A DNA stretch of 64,000 nucleotides from Janibacter indicus (lineage in GTDB: Bacteria; Actinomycetota; Actinomycetes; Actinomycetales; Dermatophilaceae), in NCBI RefSeq assembly GCF_900176385.1, contig NZ_FWXN01000004.1, positions 62,001 through 126,000 on the forward strand, written 5' to 3'. Positions 1,111 to 44,021 of the stretch are shown here, one piece after another; position 1 is the stretch's first letter, and every line of letters begins with the position of its first letter. The position numbers were made by a program, and so were the translations under genes. The notes below the pieces were generated by a model. It saw nothing but the letters and a program-made list of their open reading frames with translations, was not told where the DNA came from and did not search any database.

Positions 1111-2727
<1,617 letters not shown>

Positions 2728-2742
2728 CGTCCCGACCTGATC

Positions 2743-2780
2743 GAATGGGGTGGCGCACCGGTTGGTGCGCCACCCCATTC
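2743..2780 (+). terminator. Terminator of groES-groEL
   Basis: A perfect 17-bp inverted repeat (2743-2759 and 2764-2780) with a GGTT loop starts just after the groEL stop codon. It is GC-rich with little T-tract, as usual for actinobacteria. Confidence 0.85.
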
Positions 2781-2889
2781 GTCATGCTCCGTGGTGTAGA
2801 TGCGACCTAGGAGCCACCGACCGACCCTGATCGCTGTGAAAGACCGCCCCAGCGAGGCTGCCGCGGGCCGCAGCCGGTGGCGCTGAGGG

Positions 2890-3432
2890 TCAGTCCTCGG
2901 GATCGAGCCGCTCGGCCAAGTCCACCCAGAAGGCCAGCGCTGCCTCGGTCATCGCGATTCCCAGCTCGAGGGGGATCATCCGCGAGGCCACATCGGCACG
3001 GTCGGCGAACCGCTCCTGGATGGAGTGGTACTCGGCCAGTCGGGCCGTGTGCTGCTTGATCTGGCCGGCGGCCAACCGTCGCTCCGTGTCGGGTCCCATC
3101 AACTCGCTGAAGAAGAGTTTCAGCTCCGCGACGTCGCGGATCTGCATCGGATCGGTGATCGGTTGGTCGAGCCACGCCACCAGTGCCTCACGCCCCTCCT
3201 CGGTGATCGAGAAGGTCTGGCGGCGGCGCCCGTTCATCTCCTCCTCGACCGTGAGCAGCCCGGCGTCGGCGAGCTTGCGCGGCTCCGAGTAGAGCTGGGC
3301 GTGCGGGAACGGCCAGAAGTAGCCGATCGAGTGGCCGGAGGCCCGCTTCAAGTCGTACGAGGTGGAGGGTCCGCGGAGAGCAATCAGCCCGAGCACCAGG
3401 AACGAGGTGACAGTGAGGCGGTCCCTTGACAT
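2890..3432 (-). CDS. PadR family transcriptional regulator
   Basis: The 180-residue protein has an N-terminal winged helix (about residues 5-85) with the PadR pattern: LGLIALRGPSTSYDLK, then AQLYSEPRKLADAGLLTVEEE and an RRRQTFSITEEGREAL wing. A helical C-terminal dimerisation domain (about 95-178) follows (PadR_C/Vir_C-like). PadR repressors commonly sense aromatic acids or their CoA esters. The gene is divergent from the molybdenum hydroxylase cluster and shares a 78-bp intergenic region containing a dyad, so it probably controls that cluster. I chose the ATG at 3432 because the domain begins there. A start 54 nt upstream is open but would extend into the likely operator. Confidence 0.85.
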   Translation of the reverse strand: MSRDRLTVTSFLVLGLIALRGPSTSYDLKRASGHSIGYFWPFPHAQLYSEPRKLADAGLLTVEEEMNGRRRQTFSITEEGREALVAWLDQPITDPMQIRDVAELKLFFSELMGPDTERRLAAGQIKQHTARLAEYHSIQERFADRADVASRMIPLELGIAMTEAALAFWVDLAERLDPED

Positions 3433-3434
3433 GC

Positions 3435-3453
3435 CCACATGGTAAACATATGG
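3435..3453. promoter_or_regulatory. Candidate PadR operator
   Basis: CCACATG-GTAAA-CATATGG is a 7-bp inverted repeat with one mismatch and a 5-nt centre, immediately upstream of the regulator start and in the divergent promoter region of the catabolic operon. Size and symmetry suit a winged-helix dimer. The assignment is inference. Confidence 0.45.
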
Positions 3454-3510
3454 TGCAGTCAAGACGGTCCGAAATGGACGGTGCATGTCACACGGTGAAA
3501 GGTGTGGAGG

Positions 3511-5910
3511 ATGACTTCAAGGGCGATGTCCAGACTCGAGGACGCCAACCTTGTCACCGGCAAGGGCTCCTTCCTCGACGATCTCGACCCCATTCCGGGC
3601 ACCCTCGTCGCCGCCATCGTCCGGAGCCCGAACGCACACGCCAAGATCACGTCCGTCGACCTGCAACGCGCTCGGAATCATCCCGGCGTGGCCGCGGTGA
3701 TCGGGCCCGAGGAAGTCCTTGCAGCCTTGAAGCCCTTCCCCCTTTCGCTGCGGGCACCGATGGACTACTACCCGACCGGGACCGACAAGGTCCGCTACGT
3801 CGGGGAGCCGGTTGCCGTGGTCGTCGCCACCGATCGATACACCGCGGAGGACGCCGGCGACCTGGTGGACATCAGCTACGAGCTCGAACCCGTCGTCGTG
3901 GATGCGATGAAGGCCCTCACCCCGGACTCCCCGCTGCTGCACGAGCGCAGCAAGACCAACGTCGCCAGCGATCGCACCTTCAACTTCGGCGAGGTGGACG
4001 AGGCCTTCGCCGATGCCGCCCACGTGGTCGAGGGGGAGTACTACTTCCCGCGTTACTCCTCCACCCCGATGGAGTGCTACAACGTGGTGGCCAACTGGGT
4101 CGACGGTCCCCAACACCCCGAGGTGACGGTCTGGTCGAACTTCCACGGGCCCTTCTCGATGGTCCCGGTGCTCTGTGGGGCAATGGGGCTGACCACCTCT
4201 CAGTTGCGCCTGCACGTCCCGGCCGACAACGGCGGATCATTCGGTATCAAGGCGGGCATCTACCCCTACATCGCGCTGATGGCGCTGGCCTCTCGGCACG
4301 CCGGTCGACCGGTGCGCTGGTCGGAGGATCGCTCCGAGCACCTGCTCGCCAGCTCAGCCGGGTCGGACCGACACATGAAGGTCCGGACCGCCATCGACGC
4401 GGCCGGCATCATCCAGGCCATCGACATCGACTTCGTGGAGAACGTCGGCGCATACCTGCGCCCGCCCGAGCCCGCCACCCTCTACCGCTGCTTCGGCAAC
4501 ATGACCGGGGCGTACGGCATCGAGCACGTCCGACTCCGGTCCCGGGCAGTGGTCACGAACAAGTGCCCGACCGGGCTGAACCGTGGCTTCGGCGGCCAGC
4601 AGCTCTACTTCGCCCTGGAACGGATCATGGACAAGGCTGCCAAGGCGGTCGGGCTGGATCGGCTGGAGTTCCGCAAGCGAAACCTGATCGGAGCGGAGTC
4701 CTTCCCGTACGCCACCCCGACGGGTGGGATCTACGACTCGGGCAACTACCAGAAGGTGGTGGAACACCTCGAGGACAACTCCGACTACCAAGCCCTGTTG
4801 GCCCGCCAGGCCGAAGCCCGGGCGCGCGGCGAACTGGTCGGAACCGGGGTCGCGCTGATCGTCGAACCGTCCGGGACCAACATCGGCTACGTCGGGCTGG
4901 CCACCCCAGCGGAGAACCGTCCGCCCGGACGTGGCAAGTCGGGTTCGACGGAACACGTACACCTCAGCGTTGATCCGCAAGGCATCGTCGGCATCACCCT
5001 CGGCACCGTCCCGCAGGGCCAGGGGCATGCCACGGTCGCGCGCCAGGTGGTCGCCCGCGAACTCGGTCTACCCGAGGAGCAGGTGGTGCCGACCGTGGTG
5101 ATGGACACCGCCACCACGGCGTGGACCATCACCTCCGGCAGCTACTCCTCACGATTCTCCCCGCTGCTCACCTCCGCACTGGTGGACGGTGCCCGTGAGA
5201 TCGGTGAGCGGATCAAGAGGGCCGCTGCCCTGATGCTCGACACCACCGCGGACCTGCTCGAACTCCACCAAGGCACCGTCCGTGTCATGGGCGACCCGGA
5301 GAAGTCAGTGTCGTTCAAGCACGCCGCCGGCCTGATCCACTGGGATCCGGGCCGCCTGCCGGGAGGCGAAGAGGCCACGCTCGAGGTCAACGTTGCCTTC
5401 ACGCCCCCGCAGGCACAGGCGCCGTCGCGCACCGACCAGGTCAACTCGTCGCTGTGCTACGGCTTCGTCGCCGACCTGGTGAGTGTTCGGATCGACCCGG
5501 AGACGCTGGAGATCACCATCGACGACGTGGTCAGCGTTCACGACGCCGGCACCATCCTGAACGAGCAGTTGTTCACAGGTCAGGTGCACGGTGCGATGGT
5601 CCAGGCCCTCGGCGGTGCCATGTACGAAGAGATGAGCTACTCCGATTCGGGGCAGCCCGTCTCCACCTTCATGGACTACCTGGTGCCCACCTCGGCGGAG
5701 TCGATGTTTCCGTTCCGGATGGATCACATCGAGACCCCCTCCCCGCTCACCCGGCTGGGTGCCAAGGGAGCCGGTGAGGGCGCCAGCATGAGTTTCCCCG
5801 TGGCCCTCGCGAATGCTGTCGAGGACGCCGTCAGCGAGCACGGGGTGGAGATCAACTCCCTGCCCGTCCACCCCAGCGTGCTGCACGACCTGCTGTACCC
5901 GAACGACTGA
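3511..5910 (+). CDS. Molybdenum hydroxylase large subunit (xanthine dehydrogenase/CoxL family), candidate 2-furoyl-CoA dehydrogenase HmfA
   Basis: The product, about 799 residues, is a molybdopterin-binding large subunit: an aldehyde oxidase/xanthine dehydrogenase a/b hammerhead domain (about 5-125), then the molybdopterin domain (about 135-790). The expected catalytic Glu lies in GAKGAGEGAS near the C-terminus. The form-I CO dehydrogenase loop AYRCSFR is absent; the equivalent segment reads GLNRGFGGQQ, so it is not a CO dehydrogenase. It is followed by a crotonase, FAD subunit, 2Fe-2S subunit and acyl-CoA ligase, the set needed to activate an aromatic acid as a CoA ester and hydroxylate it. 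The best known match in gene content is the furoate pathway. The start at 3511 has GAAAGG 8 nt upstream; GTG 3502 and ATG 3526 are alternatives. Confidence 0.8.
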   Translation: MTSRAMSRLEDANLVTGKGSFLDDLDPIPGTLVAAIVRSPNAHAKITSVDLQRARNHPGVAAVIGPEEVLAALKPFPLSLRAPMDYYPTGTDKVRYVGEPVAVVVATDRYTAEDAGDLVDISYELEPVVVDAMKALTPDSPLLHERSKTNVASDRTFNFGEVDEAFADAAHVVEGEYYFPRYSSTPMECYNVVANWVDGPQHPEVTVWSNFHGPFSMVPVLCGAMGLTTSQLRLHVPADNGGSFGIKAGIYPYIALMALASRHAGRPVRWSEDRSEHLLASSAGSDRHMKVRTAIDAAGIIQAIDIDFVENVGAYLRPPEPATLYRCFGNMTGAYGIEHVRLRSRAVVTNKCPTGLNRGFGGQQLYFALERIMDKAAKAVGLDRLEFRKRNLIGAESFPYATPTGGIYDSGNYQKVVEHLEDNSDYQALLARQAEARARGELVGTGVALIVEPSGTNIGYVGLATPAENRPPGRGKSGSTEHVHLSVDPQGIVGITLGTVPQGQGHATVARQVVARELGLPEEQVVPTVVMDTATTAWTITSGSYSSRFSPLLTSALVDGAREIGERIKRAAALMLDTTADLLELHQGTVRVMGDPEKSVSFKHAAGLIHWDPGRLPGGEEATLEVNVAFTPPQAQAPSRTDQVNSSLCYGFVADLVSVRIDPETLEITIDDVVSVHDAGTILNEQLFTGQVHGAMVQALGGAMYEEMSYSDSGQPVSTFMDYLVPTSAESMFPFRMDHIETPSPLTRLGAKGAGEGASMSFPVALANAVEDAVSEHGVEINSLPVHPSVLHDLLYPND

Positions 5911-5974
5911 CGACAACACCTGCAGCCCAACCCCCAGCACAAGATCCCCCAGCACACCCATCGAAAGGAATGCC

Positions 5975-6754
5975 ATGCCCACCACCGGAGGCGACATCCG
6001 GCTCGAGCGCAGCCATGACGGCCGCGTGGCCAACCTCACCCTCGACCACGGTCGGCTCAACATCGTCACCATGGAGATGCGGGCCTTGATGGCCGAACGG
6101 TTCTCCGAGATCGATGCCGACGATGACGTTCGGGTCGTGGTCATCCGTGGTGAGGGTGAGAACTTCACCTCCGGTGGCGACATCGCCGGCTTCATGGAGG
6201 TGGCCCCCTTCGACCTGACCGATCTCGGCCACGACGTCACCGCAGCAAGCCGGTCCCCGAAGCCGGTGATCGCGGCGATCGACGGCTACTGCTTCGGCGT
6301 CGGCCTGGAGCTCGTGCTGTCCACAGACATTCGGCTGGCCACTCAGCGGTCCTCGTTCGCGCTGCCGGAGATGAAGCTCGGGATGATGCCCGGTTCGGGT
6401 GGGACCCAGCGGCTGTCCCGGCTGATCGGGCTGTCTCGCGCGAAGTACCACATCCTCACCGGCGAACGGATCACCGGCCAGCAGGCCCAGGACTGGGGTC
6501 TGGTGGCCAGTGCCTCCGCGGACAAGAAGGCAATGGAGGACGAGGTCGAGCGCGTCGTGTCCTCCCTGCTCGGCTTCTCCTCCGTGGCACTGCGGACCGC
6601 CAAGGAAGTCCTCGACCGTGGCATCGACGGCCCGCTGGCCACCGGTGTCGAGCTGGAGCGCAAGTCGTACGCGATGCTGCGCGCCACCGAGGACTTCGCC
6701 GAGGGTGTCGCTGCTTTCGGGGAAAACCGCAAGCCGCAGTTCCGGAACCGCTGA
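5975..6754 (+). CDS. Enoyl-CoA hydratase/isomerase family protein, candidate HmfE
   Basis: The 259-residue crotonase-fold protein has the oxyanion-hole segments GENFTSGGDIAGF (about 60-72) and GYCFGVGLELVLSTDIRLA, followed by FALPEMKLGMMPGSGGTQRL. Both acidic positions used by true hydratases (Glu in GLELV and in LPEMK) are kept, so water addition or hydrolysis of a CoA ester is plausible. In the furoate pathway an enzyme of this family (HmfE) is assigned to the last steps, giving 2-oxoglutarate and CoA. ATG 5975 has GAAAGGAA 6 nt upstream. It lies 64 nt after the large subunit and 1 nt before the FAD subunit, within one operon. The exact reaction is inference. Confidence 0.75.
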   Translation: MPTTGGDIRLERSHDGRVANLTLDHGRLNIVTMEMRALMAERFSEIDADDDVRVVVIRGEGENFTSGGDIAGFMEVAPFDLTDLGHDVTAASRSPKPVIAAIDGYCFGVGLELVLSTDIRLATQRSSFALPEMKLGMMPGSGGTQRLSRLIGLSRAKYHILTGERITGQQAQDWGLVASASADKKAMEDEVERVVSSLLGFSSVALRTAKEVLDRGIDGPLATGVELERKSYAMLRATEDFAEGVAAFGENRKPQFRNR

Positions 6755-6755
6755 C

Positions 6756-7646
6756 ATGAAGGCCGCTCCCTTCGCGTACGTCCGTCCGACGACTCCGCAG
6801 GACGTCGTGGCGGAACTGGCTGCCGCGCAGGCCCATGGCGAGGCGAAGGTCATCGCCGGTGGCCAGTCGTTGGTGCCAGTGCTCGCGATGCGGCTGGGGC
6901 GGCCGACCACGCTCGTCGACATCACTCGAGTGGAGCGGTGGCAGCAGATCGAAACTGCTGACCACGTTCGGATCGGGGCCGCGGTGCGGCAGCGCACAGT
7001 CGAGCGACACCGCGACCTCGGAGTTCCGCTGCTGTCACGGGCCCTGCCCTGGATCGGCCACCGGGAGATCCGGAGCCGGGGGACCGTGTGCGGATCACTG
7101 GCACACGCGGATCCCGCCTCGGAGCTACCGGCGGTGGCACTCACCCTCGGCGCCCGGTTTGGTGTCAACGGGCCCAAGGGGACCAAGGAACTCACCGCCG
7201 CGGAGTTTTTCCGCGGAGCGATGACCACGGCCCTGGAACCGGGGGAGGTACTGGAGTACGTCGACTTCCCTCGCGCCCGGCCGGGGCAGGGTTTCGGCTT
7301 CGCCGAGACGGCCCGCAGGCACGGCGACTTCGCACTGGTCGGGATCACGGCCATGGTGGAGACGGACGGCGATCGCGTCCGACGGGCCCGGATCGGCGCC
7401 TTCGGGGTCGCGGATCGCCCGCAGCTGATCGACGTCACTGATGCAGTGGGCGAACTGCTGTCGGGCGAAGTACAGCGGGCAGACGCCGGCCGGGTGACCG
7501 ACGCACTGGCGGAGGCAGCCGACGCACTGGTCACTACCGGCGGAGACAAGCACGCCAGCGCTGCTTACCGTCGACGGTTGGTGCGCGTGCTCGGTGGCCG
7601 CGAGTTGATCTCCGCCACCCAGCGCAGCATGAGGAGGAACCACTGA
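6756..7646 (+). CDS. Molybdenum hydroxylase FAD-binding subunit (CoxM family), candidate HmfB
   Basis: The 296-residue protein matches FAD-binding domain 5 of CoxM/XDH medium subunits. Its FAD motifs are KVIAGGQSLVPVLAMRL (about 30-46, the AGGQSL motif) and SRGTVCGSLAHADPASELPA (about 107-126, the TxGG-like segment), with a C-terminal CO dehydrogenase flavoprotein domain (about 175-285). The subunit takes electrons from the Fe-S centres and passes them to an acceptor. The ATG follows the crotonase stop after 1 nt, and the stop overlaps the next start (TGATG), so translation is coupled. The extra 4Fe-4S loop of 4-hydroxybenzoyl-CoA reductase is not evident, arguing against that reductase. Confidence 0.85.
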   Translation: MKAAPFAYVRPTTPQDVVAELAAAQAHGEAKVIAGGQSLVPVLAMRLGRPTTLVDITRVERWQQIETADHVRIGAAVRQRTVERHRDLGVPLLSRALPWIGHREIRSRGTVCGSLAHADPASELPAVALTLGARFGVNGPKGTKELTAAEFFRGAMTTALEPGEVLEYVDFPRARPGQGFGFAETARRHGDFALVGITAMVETDGDRVRRARIGAFGVADRPQLIDVTDAVGELLSGEVQRADAGRVTDALAEAADALVTTGGDKHASAAYRRRLVRVLGGRELISATQRSMRRNH

Positions 7647-8899
7647 TGACCGAACTCCGCGAACGGGCACTCGCCCCGCTTCGGCGGCACCGCAGGCGCC
7701 GAGGACACCAGACGCCGGGGGTGCGTTGTGCCGCCGACGAGTTGATGAGGGTCGATTTCATCATCAACGGTCGACCCGCGACCGTACACGTCGCACCGCG
7801 GGTGACACTGGCGGATGCGCTCCGTGACCATCTCGGCCTGACCGGGACCCACCTGGGCTGCGAGCACGGCGTCTGTGGCCTCTGCACGGTGCTGGTCGAC
7901 GGCGACGCTGCCCGCGCCTGCTTGATGCTGGCCTGCCAGGTCGACGGCTCCGAGGTGCTGACCGTTGAGGGAATGGGCACTCCCTCCGACCTGCATCCCC
8001 TGCAAGAGTCCTTCGGCAGCCACCACGCACTGCAGTGCGGGTTCTGCACCCCGGGGCAGATCATGAGTGCCTACGACCTGCTGAAGACCGACGAGCAGCC
8101 GAGCGAGGAAGAACTGCCGGACCAACTGTCCGGTGTGTTGTGCCGGTGCACCGGATACCGCAACATCGTCGACGCCGTCGCCGACGTCGCCCGGAAGTAC
8201 CCCGACGGGGTGCCAGGACCGCGCAACTGCGCCCAACCCGAACCCCGGCTGCCGCGGGCGACCCTCGGCGGAGCCGGTGAGCCGATGGAGCTCGAACAGG
8301 CAAATACCGGGGGACGGGCCGAGATCAGCGTTCCCTCGGGCGAGCCCACCGCCGTCGTCACGGTGGACACCGCGGCCGACGAGCCGATCGACCGGATCTG
8401 GTCGATCATCGAAAGTACCTCAACGCTCGCCGCCTGCCTGCCGGGGGCGGAGATCATCGAGGACTTCGGCGACGACCAGTACAAGGGGCGGATGCGGGTC
8501 AGCCTCGGCCCGGTACGACTCGCGTTCCTCGGGGACGTGCGGATCGTCGAGCGGGACGAGGAAACGCACCGGGTCAAGGTGATCGGCCAAGCCGCGGACG
8601 CGTCCTCCGGCGACGTCGCGGCCGTCGTCGACCTGGTCGCGGAACCGCAGGGGGACGGGCGGACCGCCCTGCGCGCCACGGCCGAACTCCACATGGCGGG
8701 CCGGATCGCGCAGTTTGGTCGCGGCCTGGTCAACGACGTCAGCCGGGACATGTTCCAGCAGTTCGCCAGCAACATCGAGGCCGCCGCACGCGGTGAGGCG
8801 CCCACCGAGGCCGCCCCGGCCAGCGCACTGTCGATGGTGATGGCCCTCATTCGCTCCCGTGTGGCAGCGCTCGTTCGACTGTTCTCCAGAAGGAATTGA
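7646..8899 (+). CDS. Fusion of 2Fe-2S subunit (CoxS) and CoxG/SRPBCC domain, candidate HmfC
   Basis: The 417-residue protein joins two domains. Residues about 35-190 are a CoxS-type small subunit with a plant-ferredoxin-like cluster (CEHGVCGLC plus a later Cys) and a second 2Fe-2S cluster (CGFCTPGQ ... CRCTGYRNI). Residues about 230-375 form a CoxG/SRPBCC domain (PIDRIWSIIESTSTLAACLP, then KGRMRVSLGPVRLAFLG). Stand-alone CoxG proteins assist cofactor maturation or membrane attachment of CO dehydrogenase. Here the domain is covalently part of the electron-transfer subunit, followed by a hydrophobic tail (LSMVMALIRSRVAALVRLF) that may contact the membrane. ATG 7646 overlaps the preceding stop and follows GAGGAA; an arginine-rich 34-residue leader precedes the ferredoxin domain, and ATG 7748 is an alternative start. 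Confidence 0.82.
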   Translation: MTELRERALAPLRRHRRRRGHQTPGVRCAADELMRVDFIINGRPATVHVAPRVTLADALRDHLGLTGTHLGCEHGVCGLCTVLVDGDAARACLMLACQVDGSEVLTVEGMGTPSDLHPLQESFGSHHALQCGFCTPGQIMSAYDLLKTDEQPSEEELPDQLSGVLCRCTGYRNIVDAVADVARKYPDGVPGPRNCAQPEPRLPRATLGGAGEPMELEQANTGGRAEISVPSGEPTAVVTVDTAADEPIDRIWSIIESTSTLAACLPGAEIIEDFGDDQYKGRMRVSLGPVRLAFLGDVRIVERDEETHRVKVIGQAADASSGDVAAVVDLVAEPQGDGRTALRATAELHMAGRIAQFGRGLVNDVSRDMFQQFASNIEAAARGEAPTEAAPASALSMVMALIRSRVAALVRLFSRRN

Positions 8900-8900
8900 C

Positions 8901-10499
8901 ATGGAACTCGGAAGAACCCTTACCTGGGCGGCTGAACGTCACCCCGAGCGGCTCGCGTTCGCAGGCCAGCGCCGACTGACCTACCGCGAGCTCGACGAGC
9001 GGACAAATCGGATCGCGAACCTGATGACCTCCCTCGGCGTACGTCGAGGCGACAGGGTCGGGTTGCTCCTGTCCAACAGCGAGGAGATGGCCTCCACCCA
9101 CCTGGCGCTGCAGAAGATCGGCGTGATGTCCACCCCGTACAACATCCGACTCGGCGTGGTCGAGTTGGTGCACTGCCTGGACGACTCGACCCCGACAGTG
9201 GTCGTGGTGGACGACGTCGCCGGCTCGATGGCCGCCGAGGTGCTCAGCGCGTCGAAGGTTTCACCGATCGTGCTGTCAGTCGACACCGATGCGGTGGCCG
9301 GGGCTCAGGACTTCGAGCAAGCGGTGGCCGGGGCGGACCCCACTGACCCGGGCGTCGAGGTCGGGCCGGACGACTGGAGCGTGATGCTCTACACCAGTGG
9401 CACCACCGGGCGGCCCAAGGGGGTGCCGCGCACCCAGAGCAACGAGCATGCCGCTTCGGTGGCGCACGTCGTGCAGGCCCGTTACGCCCCGGGGGAGATC
9501 ACCCTCGGCGCGATGCCGCTCTACCACACGATGGGCCTGCGCTCGTTGCTCTCGATGGTGGTGGTGGGCGGCACCTTCGTCGTCCAGCCGGTGTTCAACC
9601 CAGGCGAAGCAGTCGACCTGATCGAACAGGAGGGCGTGACGGCGCTCTACCTGGTGCCGACGGCCTTCTGGTCCGTTGTGAACAAGGGTGGCGACATGGA
9701 AAGGGTGGCCGGCAGCGTCCGCAAGCTGGCCTTCGCCGGGGCACCAATGACCTCCGCGCTCTGCGAGCAGTTGGTGCAGGCGATCCACCCCGAGGTGTTC
9801 GTCAACCACTACGGATCCAGCGAGGTCTACACCTTCTCCATCGCCGCCGACGCCGCCGCCAAGCCGGGCGCAGCCGGACGCCCGGGTGTGTTCGGACGCT
9901 GGCGGGTCGTGGACCCCACCTCGGATGAGACTCATGACTCCCTGCCGGTGGGAACCGAGGGCGAAATCGTGGTCGATCTGCGCTGCCCCGAGGCCTTCGC
10001 CGGCTACTGGCAGCGTCCTGACGCCGACGCGAAGTCGATTCGCCACGGGTGGTACCACACCGGGGACGTCGGGCGGGTCGACGAGGACGGCGACCTGTGG
10101 GTCGAGGGCCGCGTCGACGACATGATCATCACCGGCGGCGAAAACGTCCACCCGGTCGAGGTGGAAGACGTCCTGTCCCACCACCCGGCGATCGGCGAGG
10201 TGGTCGTCGTTGGCCTTCCGGACGAACGCTGGGGGCAGTCCGTGACCTGCTTCGTCGTGCCGGTTGACGGAGTCGACCCGAGTGGGCTCAGCGCGCAGAT
10301 CCTCGACTGGGCCAAGAACGACTCCGGTCTGTCGCCGTACAAGGTACCCAAGCGTGTCGAGATCGTGCCGGAGATTCCGAAGAGCCCGGTGGGGAAGATC
10401 CTCCGCCGAAAGCTGATCGACGCCGAGGCCGCCACGACGGCACGGCCCGTTCCTGATCAACCCACTGAACCACCCACCGAACCACCAACAACTGCCTGA
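8901..10499 (+). CDS. AMP-dependent aryl/acyl-CoA ligase, candidate 2-furoyl-CoA synthetase HmfD
   Basis: The 532-residue adenylating enzyme has all ANL-family motifs: P-loop YTSGTTGRPKGV (about 170-181), NHYGSSE (about 305), the hinge region GWYHTGDVGRVDEDG and GRVDDMIITGGENVHPVEVE, and the catalytic Lys near the end (SPVGKILRRK). The C-terminal half resembles 4-chlorobenzoate/4-hydroxybenzoate-CoA ligases (MIITGGENVHP, RWGQSVT), fitting a cyclic carboxylic acid substrate. It would start the pathway by making the CoA thioester that the molybdenum hydroxylase oxidises. ATG 8901 has AGAAGGA 6 nt upstream and lies 1 nt after the previous stop. It ends with a low-complexity Pro/Thr/Glu tail (PTEPPTEPPTTA) directly at the junction with the permease remnant. 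Confidence 0.85.
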   Translation: MELGRTLTWAAERHPERLAFAGQRRLTYRELDERTNRIANLMTSLGVRRGDRVGLLLSNSEEMASTHLALQKIGVMSTPYNIRLGVVELVHCLDDSTPTVVVVDDVAGSMAAEVLSASKVSPIVLSVDTDAVAGAQDFEQAVAGADPTDPGVEVGPDDWSVMLYTSGTTGRPKGVPRTQSNEHAASVAHVVQARYAPGEITLGAMPLYHTMGLRSLLSMVVVGGTFVVQPVFNPGEAVDLIEQEGVTALYLVPTAFWSVVNKGGDMERVAGSVRKLAFAGAPMTSALCEQLVQAIHPEVFVNHYGSSEVYTFSIAADAAAKPGAAGRPGVFGRWRVVDPTSDETHDSLPVGTEGEIVVDLRCPEAFAGYWQRPDADAKSIRHGWYHTGDVGRVDEDGDLWVEGRVDDMIITGGENVHPVEVEDVLSHHPAIGEVVVVGLPDERWGQSVTCFVVPVDGVDPSGLSAQILDWAKNDSGLSPYKVPKRVEIVPEIPKSPVGKILRRKLIDAEAATTARPVPDQPTEPPTEPPTTA

Positions 10500-10667
10500 C
10501 TTCTGTCGGCAGTTCTCCCGGACAACGAGGTCCCCTTCGCTGTCGACTGGTGGCTCGTTGCCGGCGTCGTGGTGCTCATGACCGGGGGGACGGCGGCGGC
10601 TGCCTGGGTCGCTTCAGCCCGGATCGTGCGGGCCGCAGACGTGGCTGCGCTGCGCGACGGGGAGTGA
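10500..10667 (+). pseudogene. C-terminal remnant of an FtsX-type ABC transporter permease
   Basis: Directly after the ligase stop, the same frame stays open for 55 codons without a start. It encodes LLSAVLPDNEVPFAVDWW, a hydrophobic stretch (LVAGVVVLMTGGTAAAAWVA), then SARIVRAADVAALRDGE. A last transmembrane helix followed by R..R..D.V.ALR is the signature C-terminus of FtsX/MacB permeases. No N-terminal part is found on the other side of the cluster within the window. The simplest reading is that the catabolic island inserted into, or replaced the front of, a permease gene. Similarity is by motif only. Confidence 0.65.
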
Positions 10668-10690
10668 CCCCCTCCACCCGCGAAGGGGGA

Positions 10691-11893
10691 TCAGGCCGTG
10701 ACGATGACCCGGACCTCGACGGTCTCGGGCAGGTCGCGCAGACGCTGCTCGGTGTCGGCGGGCAGGCCGCTCGCGAGGTCGGTGACGGCGTAGCCGTACT
10801 CGCCCTTGGTGCTCAGCTGCTGGCTGTCGATGTTGACGTCGCCCTCGGACAGGATCGTGTTGACCCGGGCGAGGACGCCGGGGACGTTCTTGTGCAGGTG
10901 GAGGATGCGGGTGCTACCCACGGCGACGGGGGCAGCGACGGCCGGGACGTTGACCGACATCGAGGTCGCGCCGGTGTCGGCCCAGTCGCGCAGCTTGCCG
11001 GCGACGTAGCGGCCGATGTCGTACTGCGCCTCCTCGGTGGAGCCACCGACGTGCGGGGTGAGGATGACGTTGGGGATGCCCTGCAGGCAGTTCTCGAAGG
11101 GGTCGCCCGCCTTCTTGGGCTCGCTCGGGAAGACGTCGACGGCCGCGCCGGCGATGTGCCCGGAGACGAGGTTGTCGCGCAGGGCCTCGAGGTCGACGAC
11201 GAAGCCGCGCGAGAGGTTGAGGAAGAGGCTGCGCGGGCGCATCTTGGCGAACTGCTCGGCGCCGAAGGTGCCGGCATTGCCCGCGCGGCCGTCGACGTGG
11301 AGCGTGATCGTCTCGCAGGTCTCGAGCAGCTCGTCGAGCGAGGTGCACTTCGTGGCATTGCCCAGCGGCAGCTTGTCCTCGAGGTCGTAGAAGGACACGT
11401 GCATGCCGAAGGCCTCGGCGACGACCGACAGCTGGGCGCCGATGTTGCCGTAGCCGACGATGCCGAGCGTGCGGCCGCGCACCTCGTGGGCGCCCTTGGC
11501 CGACTTGTCCCAGACACCGGCGTGGAGCGCGGCGTTCTTGTCCGTCAGGTGGCGGGCGAGGGCGATGATCTCGCCCAGGGCCAGCTCGACGACGCTGCGC
11601 GTGTTGGAGAAGGGGGCATTGAAGACGACGGTGCCGGCCTGGGCGGCCGCGTCGAGGTCGATCTGGTTGGTGCCGATGCAGAAGGCGCCGACGGCCTTGA
11701 GCTCGGGCCGGGCCTGGATGACCGCCTGGGTCACCTTGGTCTTGGAGCGGACGCCGAGCAGGTCGACGCCCTCGAGGGCGGAGATCAGCTCGGTCTCGTC
11801 GAGGGCCCCGGAGCGGGTCTCGACCTCGAAGCCGGCGGAGGTCAGGGCGTCACGGGCGACGTCGTGGATGTTCTCGAGCAGCAGCACCTTCAC
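10691..11893 (-). CDS. serA: D-3-phosphoglycerate dehydrogenase
   Basis: The 400-residue protein catalyses the first step of serine biosynthesis, oxidising 3-phosphoglycerate with NAD+. It has the D-2-hydroxyacid dehydrogenase fold: RSKTKVTQ, the NAD motif GIVGYGNIGAQLS (about 152-164), the catalytic Arg in NLSRG, the Glu region and the His in LTPHVGGSTEEAQ, plus a C-terminal ACT domain (about 325-400; HKNVPGVLARVN). Length fits the E. coli-type enzyme and not the longer mycobacterial type with an ASB domain. The GTG at 11893 is preferred: TACCCT ends 6 nt upstream, suggesting a leaderless transcript, and homologues begin at KVLLLENI. Confidence 0.93.
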   Translation of the reverse strand: MKVLLLENIHDVARDALTSAGFEVETRSGALDETELISALEGVDLLGVRSKTKVTQAVIQARPELKAVGAFCIGTNQIDLDAAAQAGTVVFNAPFSNTRSVVELALGEIIALARHLTDKNAALHAGVWDKSAKGAHEVRGRTLGIVGYGNIGAQLSVVAEAFGMHVSFYDLEDKLPLGNATKCTSLDELLETCETITLHVDGRAGNAGTFGAEQFAKMRPRSLFLNLSRGFVVDLEALRDNLVSGHIAGAAVDVFPSEPKKAGDPFENCLQGIPNVILTPHVGGSTEEAQYDIGRYVAGKLRDWADTGATSMSVNVPAVAAPVAVGSTRILHLHKNVPGVLARVNTILSEGDVNIDSQQLSTKGEYGYAVTDLASGLPADTEQRLRDLPETVEVRVIVTA

Positions 11894-42451: not shown

Positions 42452-43420
42452 TCAGTCGCCCGGGTCCGCCGGCCCCTCGTGCCCGGCGGCCTCGTCACGC
42501 TGGGCCCACTCGAGGAGCAGCGTGAGGTCGTGCGCGACGTCGTCGATGCTCGCGTGCAGGTCGCCGACCTCAGCGAAGCGCTCCGGTACGGTCGCGATCG
42601 TGCAGTCCTGCGGCTCGACGTCGGCGATCTCGTCCCAGGTGACCGGCGTCGACACCGTCCCGCGCGCATTGCCTCGCACCGAGTAGGCGGCCGCGATGGT
42701 GTGGTCGCGGGCATTCTGGTTGTAGTCGACGAAGACCGCCGCCGGGTCGCGGTCCTTGCGCCACCACGTCGTCGTCACGTCCTGCGGGGCGCGTCTCTCG
42801 ACCTCACGGGCGAAGGCGAGCGCCGCCCTTCGTACCTCGCCGAACTCCCACCGCGGCTCGACCCGGACGTAGACGTGCAGGCCGGACCCGCCGCTCGTCT
42901 TGGGGTAGCCGACGACCCCGAGCTCGTCGAGCACCTCGTGGACGACGCCGGCCACCCGCCGCACCCGGTCGAAGGGAGCATCCGGCATGGGGTCGAGGTC
43001 GATCCGCCACTCGTCGGGTCGGTCGACGTCGGCGCGGCGGACATTCCACGGGTGCAGCTCGACCGTGCTCATCTGCACCGCCCAGATGATCTGCGCGAGC
43101 TCGGTCGGGCACAGCTCGTCGGCGTGCAGGTCGAAGCGGGGGAAGTGCAGCCGCACCGTCTCGACCCAGTCGGGCGCCCCCTTGGGCAGGCGCTTCTGGT
43201 GGACCTTGGCGCCGCTCACCCCCTTGGGGAAGCGGTGCAGCATCGTCGGCCGCTCGCGCAGCGCGCGCAGGATCCCGTCGCCGACGGCCAGGTAGTAGTG
43301 CGCGAGGTCGAGCTTGGTCTCCCCGCGCTCGGGGAAGTAGACCCGGTCGGGGGAGGAGATGCGCACATCGCGCCCCCCGACGTCGAGATGGACGTCCTCG
43401 CCGTGCTTGCCGCGGGCCAT
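42452..43420 (-). CDS. Stand-alone LigD-type polymerase/primase (NHEJ)
   Basis: The 322-residue protein is the archaeo-eukaryotic primase-like polymerase domain of LigD. It has ISSPDRVYFPERGETKLDLA, RFPKGVSGAKVHQKRLP, the catalytic Asp pair in WRIDLDPMP (about 145-153), TSGGSGLHVYVRVEP and FVDYNQNARDHTIAAAYSVR. The nuclease and ligase domains of full LigD are absent, so it is the separate-polypeptide form, used with Ku and another ligase in end joining. ATG 43420 follows TAGTCT by 7 nt; AAGGA also precedes it. It lies 10 nt after a GNAT gene on the same strand. No ku gene is in the window. Confidence 0.9.
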   Translation of the reverse strand: MARGKHGEDVHLDVGGRDVRISSPDRVYFPERGETKLDLAHYYLAVGDGILRALRERPTMLHRFPKGVSGAKVHQKRLPKGAPDWVETVRLHFPRFDLHADELCPTELAQIIWAVQMSTVELHPWNVRRADVDRPDEWRIDLDPMPDAPFDRVRRVAGVVHEVLDELGVVGYPKTSGGSGLHVYVRVEPRWEFGEVRRAALAFAREVERRAPQDVTTTWWRKDRDPAAVFVDYNQNARDHTIAAAYSVRGNARGTVSTPVTWDEIADVEPQDCTIATVPERFAEVGDLHASIDDVAHDLTLLLEWAQRDEAAGHEGPADPGD

Positions 43421-43430
43421 GTCCTTGAGA

Positions 43431-44021
43431 CTAGGCCAGCCGGGCGCCCGCGGGGCGGTCCGTGACCAGGGTGGGCACCCAGTAGCGCCGCTTGCCGACC
43501 CGCGAGTCCTCGTAGGCCCCACCGGCGCCCTCGATCGTCGCGCGGGAGGCGGCGTTGTCCTCGTCGCACGTGACGAGCACCCGGTCGTGCCCCATCTCGG
43601 CGGCGAGCTCGAGCACCTGGCGCAGGGCGGCGCTCGCGTGCCCCTGCCGCCTCGCCGAGGGCCGGATCGAGTAGCCGATGTGCCCGCCCTGCTCGAGGAG
43701 GAAGTCGGTCAGCTCGTGCCGGAAGGCGATCGAGCCGAGATAGGTGTCGCCCTCGACGATCCACAGGTAGGTGCACGGGACGAAGTGGGCCGGCCTCGGG
43801 GTCTCCGGCAGCTCGTCGGCGCGGCGCGCCTGCACCAGCCGACGGAAGGCGTCGGGGTTCTCGAGCCCCTCGCGGGTGAAGTCCAGGCCGGCGAAGCCCG
43901 TCGTCGGGTCGGCCGCCAGCTGCAGCTCGCCGTCGCCGTCGCGGTGCGCCCCGTCGAACTCGTCCAGCGCCTCGAGGTAGGAGCGCTGGTAGCGGGCGTC
44001 GGGTCGCACGATCTGGGTCAT
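43431..44021 (-). CDS. GNAT family N-acetyltransferase
   Basis: The 196-residue protein has the GNAT core: LGSIAFRHELTDFLLEQGGHIGYSIRPSARRQGHAS, in parts (about 118-153), with the acetyl-CoA loop RRQGHAS, then VLVTCDEDNAASRATIEGAGG. It is related to the YitI-like acetyltransferase group. The target is unknown. ATG 44021 follows TAGGGT by 7 nt and may be near-leaderless. The gene ends 10 nt before the LigD-type gene and may be read with it, though that gene has its own -10-like hexamer. Confidence 0.88.
   Translation of the reverse strand: MTQIVRPDARYQRSYLEALDEFDGAHRDGDGELQLAADPTTGFAGLDFTREGLENPDAFRRLVQARRADELPETPRPAHFVPCTYLWIVEGDTYLGSIAFRHELTDFLLEQGGHIGYSIRPSARRQGHASAALRQVLELAAEMGHDRVLVTCDEDNAASRATIEGAGGAYEDSRVGKRRYWVPTLVTDRPAGARLA

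What the first reader, a model, noticed from the sequence alone, without database searches (positions are those of the whole stretch)
2890..10499. PadR-controlled hmf-like (furoic acid) catabolic island with a new gene order
Seen: a divergent PadR gene, then a molybdenum hydroxylase large subunit, crotonase, FAD subunit, 2Fe-2S/CoxG fusion and aryl-CoA ligase, tightly spaced. Known: furoate catabolism (hmfABCDE in Cupriavidus basilensis) uses exactly this set: CoA ligase, three-subunit molybdenum furoyl-CoA dehydrogenase, and a crotonase-family last enzyme giving 2-oxoglutarate. Inference: this is an actinobacterial version with order A-E-B-C-D and PadR control. Other cyclic acids remain possible substrates.
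Basis: partly seen in the sequence, partly recalled or inferred. Interest (0 to 1): 0.72.

Follow-up and report, generated by a model that had tools for sequence, protein, structure and literature searches.

The report
Actinobacterial furoate-degradation operon
This is a horizontally acquired gene set that very probably lets an actinobacterium break down 2-furoic acid to a common metabolite, a known pathway here in a distinct actinobacterial build with its own type of regulator and an unusual protein fusion.

Summary
In detail: 2890-10499 carries a divergent padR and five co-directional intact genes. Against the hmf-type cluster of Cupriavidus necator NH9 the five proteins are 43-56% identical; HmfE and HmfD queries score the window genes at about twice the bits of any other gene of the genome. 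The large subunit groups with hmf-type relatives and misses the CO dehydrogenase and 4-hydroxybenzoyl-CoA reductase cut-offs by far. The nearest relative cluster, Georgenia subflava, continues on the same strand with MFS, aldehyde dehydrogenase, UbiD, LysR, UbiX and XdhC genes, a furandicarboxylate-to-furoate upper pathway. Furoate is thus well supported by inference, not shown. New details: CoxG is fused to the 2Fe-2S subunit in 14 of 14 actinobacterial clusters, but to the large subunit in 54 of 61 other, mostly proteobacterial, loci and is separate in 6 of 7 Bacilli; a shared palindromic motif overlaps a promoter-like site before hmfA. The island sits at a variable groEL-serA junction, absent there in 7 of 7 congeners examined. 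Verdict: new variant of a known kind.

The parts
2890..3432 (-). PadR-family regulator (ORF open to 3486; ATG at 3432 fits relatives)
   Evidence: Pfam PadR + Vir_act_alpha_C; 55-67% identical PadR beside 12 of 13 related actinobacterial clusters
3426..3454 (+). sigma-70-like promoter TTGACA-N17-TATGGT for the operon; its -35 box overlaps the padR start codon
   Evidence: the one promoter-like site in 2650-10750, where shuffles give 0.4 on average; 0 of 200 shuffles of the upstream stretch score as high
3440..3487 (.). predicted PadR operator region (motif hits at 3440, 3459, 3468)
   Evidence: motif trained on 12 other loci; held-out window site 3468 ranks 2nd of all + strand positions of the 64 kb, 3459 and 3440 are in the top 8
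3511..5910 (+). HmfA-like molybdopterin-binding large subunit (no CoxG tail); start 3502, 3511 or 3526
5975..6754 (+). HmfE-like crotonase-fold enzyme
   Evidence: 45% to NH9 HmfE; NH9 HmfE gives it 221 bits against 110 for the next of 14 matches in the genome; both crotonase Glu positions kept
6756..7646 (+). HmfB-like FAD subunit
   Evidence: Pfam FAD_binding_5, CO_deh_flav_C; 43% to NH9 HmfB
7646..8899 (+). HmfC-like 2Fe-2S subunit (conserved part from 7745) fused to a C-terminal CoxG domain (about 8381-8785) with a basic tail
   Evidence: Pfam Fer2, Fer2_2, COXG; 2Fe-2S part 56% to NH9 HmfC; fusion in 14 of 14 actinobacterial loci
8901..10499 (+). HmfD-like 2-furoyl-CoA synthetase (AMP-dependent acyl-CoA ligase)
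   Evidence: 47% to NH9 HmfD; NH9 HmfD gives it 438 bits against 209 for the next of 21 matches in the genome
10500..10667 (+). 55-codon fragment resembling the 3' end of an ABC permease gene that sits at the same junction in congeners; flank of the island, not part of the pathway
   Evidence: 40% over 42 aa, E 1e-6, to L152; weaker to L149 and L148 (composition correction and low-complexity filter off)

Best explanation
A horizontally acquired furoate catabolic operon of the hmf type. HmfD makes 2-furoyl-CoA from 2-furoate. HmfABC, a molybdenum hydroxylase with FAD and 2Fe-2S subunits, hydroxylates C5. The lactone form opens, and HmfE (crotonase fold) releases 2-oxoglutarate, which enters the TCA cycle. 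CoxG, here carried on the 2Fe-2S subunit, probably tethers or matures the enzyme at the membrane, as its relatives are thought to do (recalled). PadR probably represses the operon by sitting on the operator over the -10 box and start site, and is released by furoate or furoyl-CoA. Shown here as sequence facts: gene content, relatedness, fusion, promoter-like site and motif. Inferred: substrate, reaction order, inducer, role of CoxG.
For: Window proteins 43-56% identical to the NH9 cluster; D and E stand out as orthologues in the genome. The NH9 cluster lies between UbiD, UbiX, GMC oxidoreductase, LysR and MFS genes, as published for HMF/furoate clusters (PMC6604932, PMC12064950, passages). A: 57 hmf-type rows separate from 18 outgroup rows at 100% SH-aLRT. 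Georgenia's sister cluster continues into MFS (51% to G. kaustophilus), aldehyde dehydrogenase (40% to D. shibae), UbiD (65% to D. shibae), LysR, UbiX (63%), XdhC (32%). XdhC and MoaA genes exist elsewhere in the window's genome. padR and motif recur.
Against: No biochemical or growth data. I did not obtain the characterised C. basilensis HMF14 proteins; the reference is NH9, chosen by cluster architecture. The window genome has no UbiD relative at E 1e-20, and of nine relatives' genomes searched only Georgenia has a close one. No transporter in the operon. Identity of A to non-actinobacterial clusters is only 40-48%, so a related five-ring acid could be the true substrate. PMC12064950 lists a separate putative ring-opening hydrolase (hyd) that this operon does not show.
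Confidence: 0.85

Rival explanations
1. Same enzyme logic, other substrate: thiophene-2-carboxylate, pyrrole-2-carboxylate or a substituted furoate is the physiological substrate of this clade.
For: 40-48% identity of A to non-actinobacterial clusters leaves room for a shift. Within the held flanks 0 of 13 related actinobacterial loci show a UbiD marker and 1 of 13 (Georgenia) an aldehyde dehydrogenase marker. Of 10 genomes searched for UbiD, 7 incl. the window's had none at E 1e-20 and 2 only remote ones (154 and 138 bits against 523 in Georgenia).
Against: The window's sister cluster in Georgenia (UbiD and UbiX just beyond the first flank) and the more distant L111 cluster (UbiD 71% to G. 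kaustophilus, UbiX 41% to NH9) stand beside UbiD and UbiX, as do proteobacterial and Bacilli clusters around the actinobacterial clade. MFS genes like those of furan clusters lie near the operon in Georgenia (51%), L031 (48%) and L036 (50%).
Confidence: 0.1
2. The large subunit belongs to another molybdenum hydroxylase class (CO dehydrogenase, 4-hydroxybenzoyl-CoA reductase, nicotinate or quinoline oxidoreductase) and the neighbours are coincidental.
For: Its best NCBIfam hits are CODH and related models and its best solved relative is CoxL; CoxG is named after CODH. My tree held no characterised member of these classes; its outgroup was unnamed paralogues.
Against: All NCBIfam hits of the large subunit are far below cut-off (466 of 950 for the best, 366 of 994.55 for 4-HBCR), as they also are for the reference Hmf large subunits. 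Solved CoxL 403 and 4-HBCR 207 bits by phmmer against 632 for NH9 HmfA by blastp (the two scales are only roughly comparable). The same partner genes recur in 13 of 13 related actinobacterial loci.
Confidence: 0.03

Closest known systems
hmfABCDE of Cupriavidus basilensis HMF14 (described in PMC6678421 and PMC6604932, passages seen) and the matching cluster of C. necator NH9 plasmid pENH92 (L007)
   Same: same five enzymes; to NH9: A 44%, C 56% (2Fe-2S part), D 47%, E 45%, B 43%. HMF14 proteins not compared
   Different: order A-E-B-C-D instead of A-B-C-D-E; PadR instead of LysR/AraC; CoxG on the 2Fe-2S subunit instead of on HmfA; no upper pathway or transporter in the island
hmf-like cluster of Geobacillus kaustophilus pHTA426 (L005)
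   Same: same enzymes, 35-54% identity; UbiD, MFS, XdhC nearby
   Different: CoxG is a separate gene; order A-CoxG-B-C-D-E; other regulator
Georgenia subflava cluster (L030, G449)
   Same: same order, divergent PadR, same fusion; 52-82% identity
   Different: followed by MFS, aldehyde dehydrogenase, UbiD, LysR, UbiX, XdhC
4-hydroxybenzoyl-CoA reductase (HcrABC)
   Same: three-subunit molybdenum enzyme acting on an aroyl-CoA (recalled)
   Different: 366 of 994.55 bits required; solved alpha subunit only 207 bits

Membership tests
hmf furoate cluster | genes for CoA ligase, three-subunit molybdenum dehydrogenase and crotonase-type last enzyme together | tested here: met
hmf furoate cluster | proteins orthologous to Hmf proteins rather than to general paralogues | tested here: met
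   E 221 vs 110 bits, D 438 vs 209; A in the hmf-type side of the tree; B and C by identity and position only. Reference chosen by cluster architecture; HMF14 sequences not obtained
hmf furoate cluster | CoxG partner (seen in most clusters here) | tested here: met
   present, but fused to C
hmf furoate cluster | gene order ABCDE (called highly conserved in PMC6604932) | tested here: not met
   A-E-B-C-D; order is a tendency of described clusters and does not bear on the chemistry
hmf furoate cluster | link to furan upper pathway (UbiD, UbiX, furan oxidation) | tested here: inconclusive
   UbiD absent from the window genome; UbiD and UbiX beside the sister cluster in Georgenia; UbiD marker in only 13 of 80 scan loci within held flanks
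hmf furoate cluster | growth on and induction by 2-furoate | not testable with these tools
   needs bench work
4-hydroxybenzoyl-CoA reductase | NCBIfam TIGR03194 above cut-off | tested here: not met
   365.7 of 994.55 bits
aerobic CO dehydrogenase | NCBIfam TIGR02416 above cut-off | tested here: not met
   422.8 of 991.15 bits
PadR family | PadR domain above Pfam gathering score | tested here: met
   35.7 bits, cut-off 27

The most novel reading that the evidence does not exclude
Actinobacteria hold their own branch of furoyl-CoA dehydrogenase, in which the CoxG membrane/maturation domain moved onto the electron-transfer (2Fe-2S) subunit, independently of the proteobacterial fusion to the catalytic subunit, together with a PadR switch that senses furoate or furoyl-CoA through a conserved operator overlapping the -10 box.
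Probability: 0.6. Interest if true: 0.5.

Novelty: new variant of a known kind. Interest (0 to 1): 0.42.

Why it matters
It extends furan degradation, relevant to clean-up of lignocellulose hydrolysates and furan-based plastics, to actinobacteria, and offers a testable furoate-responsive PadR sensor. Two fusions of CoxG to different subunits of the same enzyme, apparently independent, are a natural experiment on where CoxG must sit to serve a molybdenum hydroxylase.

Tried and rejected
Considered and rejected: CO dehydrogenase and 4-HBCR membership. No NCBIfam model passes its cut-off among the hits shown for the window proteins or the reference Hmf proteins (for long lists only the best 25 are shown), so family scans alone could not decide. 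In one search the FAD-subunit query was out of frame by a scripting slip and gave no hit; onward used the right frame. The script flagged L110 as a CoxG-2Fe-2S fusion; direct translation shows a stop between them, so L110 is counted as separate. The terminator scan gave 1 site against 2.9 in shuffles.

Papers: Koopman 2010 and Wierckx 2011 are not held. Eight library searches listed no paper that I could recognise, from titles and starts of abstracts, as describing an actinobacterial hmf cluster or a PadR regulator of furoate. Four lists were capped (20 of 27, 15 of 201, 10 of 52) and the library lacks most subscription journals, so this is weak evidence of novelty.

Limits of the motif test: the real run used 25 starts of 60 rounds, the 12 shuffled controls 3 starts of 30 rounds with mononucleotide shuffling; the 12 loci are related, so shared descent inflates the score; the sites picked are not all in one register and lie 17-81 bases before the first gene's match. 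Promoter match: 8 or fewer of 200 shuffles score as high in the window, L030-L033 and L036; 17 to 149 of 200 do in the other eight loci, so the promoter is not shown to be conserved in those.

Tree limits: quick search, LG+G4, SH-aLRT only; the program warned of long branches (among them L008 and L108) and of odd letter make-up in nine rows, mainly Bacilli. Eight of the 57 hmf-type rows had no CoxG state and were not counted in the two changes.
Full report
Observation. The window carries six intact genes at 2890-10499 as described: padR on the minus strand, then on the plus strand a molybdopterin-binding large subunit, a crotonase, an FAD subunit, a 2Fe-2S protein with a C-terminal CoxG domain, and an AMP-dependent acyl-CoA ligase. 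The start of padR is more likely 3432 than 3486, judged from relatives. No tRNA gene was found in the window.

What the proteins are. Against the hmf-type cluster of Cupriavidus necator NH9 (L007; with UbiD, UbiX, GMC oxidoreductase, LysR and MFS genes around it) the window proteins are 44% (A), 45% (E), 56% (C, 2Fe-2S part) and 47% (D) identical, and B is 43%. NH9 stands in for the characterised C. basilensis HMF14 by its architecture; I did not obtain the HMF14 proteins. In the window's own genome the NH9 HmfE query gives 221 bits for the window crotonase and 110 for the next of 14 matches; the NH9 HmfD query gives 438 bits and 209 for the next of 21. NCBIfam models for CO dehydrogenase, 4-hydroxybenzoyl-CoA reductase and others match the large subunit far below cut-off, as they do the reference large subunits. 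Among solved structures the best is CoxL (403 bits), with 4-HBCR at 207.

Relatives. Thirteen are actinobacterial at 60-72% identity (Georgenia, two Streptomyces, Blastococcus, five Pseudonocardia, Amycolatopsis, Actinomycetospora, a Nesterenkonia MAG, a Solirubrobacterales MAG), then six Bacilli and 61 others at 40-47%, nearly all Proteobacteria. In 396 genomes sampled from the phylum, 5 including the window's own match at E 1e-140. Among 58 genomes drawn as relatives, the window's own included, the other matches listed (E 1e-100 or better) are at most 38% identical. In a 75-row tree the 57 hmf-type rows (48 of the 80 scan loci, the window, four plasmid loci and four phylum loci) separate from 18 outgroup rows at 100; the window pairs with Georgenia and Nesterenkonia (99) inside a 14-row actinobacterial clade (100). 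The outgroup is unnamed paralogues, not characterised enzymes.

Gene order and the PadR. Window, Georgenia and Nesterenkonia have A-E-B-C-D; the other 11 actinobacterial loci have D-A-E-B-C. PadR lies next to the operon in 13 of 14 (not in L042), divergent in 12 and codirectional in L032. More distant actinobacterial genomes G153 and G164 have A-D-E-B-C-CoxG.

CoxG. The domain is fused to the 2Fe-2S subunit in 14 of 14 actinobacterial loci; fused to the large subunit in 54 of the 61 loci L049-L109, separate in L057 and not found in six; separate in six of seven Bacilli loci (L005, L043, L045-L048; not found in L044, a short contig) and in three f34 genomes. On the tree, with 49 of 57 rows given a state, this needs two changes, so the two fusions are best read as independent. 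Its role in the enzyme is inferred from CODH and CoxG knowledge as I recall it.

Furan context. Within flanks of at most 10 kb, a UbiD marker lies beside 13 of the 80 scan loci (2 of 6 Bacilli, 11 of 61 others, one of these only 33% identical) and beside 0 of 13 actinobacterial ones; most loci therefore show no upper pathway. But in Georgenia subflava a longer stretch shows the operon followed on the same strand by MFS (51% to G. kaustophilus), aldehyde dehydrogenase (40% to D. shibae), UbiD (65% to D. shibae), LysR, UbiX (63% to D. shibae) and XdhC (32%). In the more distant G142 (L111) UbiD is 71% identical to that of G. kaustophilus, with UbiX and aldehyde dehydrogenase next to it. Of 10 genomes searched for UbiD, Georgenia has a close one (523 bits), two have remote ones (154 and 138 bits at best) and seven, the window's own among them, none at E 1e-20 (L032's genome was not held). 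The window organism therefore probably starts from furoate or furfural, not from furandicarboxylate.

Regulation. A motif search in the stretches before the operon in 12 other loci gave a palindrome (TCTGTATCGTACGATACAGA, 198.6 bits; 93-102 in 12 shuffled controls that were run with fewer starts). Held out, the window site at 3468 (12.8 bits) ranks second of all plus-strand positions in 64 kb, and 3459 and 3440 are in the top eight; the top-ranked position, 5709, lies inside the large-subunit gene and is unexplained. The one promoter-like site of 2650-10750 is TTGACA-N17-TATGGT at 3426-3454, where shuffles give 0.4 on average. The motif hits thus cover the -10 box and the expected start site: a repressor layout, by inference. 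A comparable promoter is clear in five other loci and not above chance in the other eight.

Origin. groEL-serA is a conserved neighbourhood in the genus. In 7 of the 15 congeners I took this stretch: the gap is near-empty in three (33 to about 140 bases between aligned parts), holds genes that look like PadR and ABC transporter genes in three and an ABC-type cassette in one (read by eye from the translations, no family scan), and none has the island. A 55-codon fragment like the end of that ABC permease lies just after the island, suggesting that the island replaced such a cassette. GC is 0.666-0.686 over 2001-10000 against 0.689-0.760 in the other 2-kb steps. GC3 of padR, A, C and D is 0.85-0.87 against 0.93-0.98 for groEL, serA, the racemase gene and guaB; some ORFs further off are as low (0.82-0.89), and E and B did not pass that script's filter, so composition alone is weak. 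XdhC and MoaA are elsewhere in the genome.

Literature. Pathway statements come from passages of PMC6678421, PMC6604932 and PMC12064950. HmfE is described there as a 2-oxoglutaroyl-CoA hydrolase or thioesterase, with no gene firmly assigned to opening the lactone; both crotonase glutamates are kept in the 22 aligned members, so a water-adding, lactone-opening role for HmfE cannot be excluded.

Noticed in passing
window 2728-10690 and L147-L153: The groEL-serA junction is a variable site in this genus: near-empty in three congeners, PadR-like + ABC transporter-like genes in three, another ABC-type cassette in one, the hmf island in the window.
   Followed up: partly
window 10500-10667: 55-codon remnant resembling the end of an FtsX-like ABC permease gene directly after the island.
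   Followed up: partly
window 5709: The strongest plus-strand match to the PadR motif in 64 kb lies inside the hmfA gene; chance or an internal operator.
   Followed up: no
L115 (G000:C15:66000-84000): The genome holds a second molybdenum hydroxylase cluster with its own CoxG-like gene and XdhC, only 31-33% identical in A and CoxG.
   Followed up: no
L008 Halorussus vallis plasmid: A haloarchaeal plasmid cluster has the basal relative of HmfA with B, C, two AMP-binding ligases, a BenE-type transporter and XdhC, but no crotonase match in the stretch held; possibly a different substrate or last step.
   Followed up: no
window 42452-43522 -: Protein with a LigD primase-polymerase domain (end-joining type repair).
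   Followed up: no
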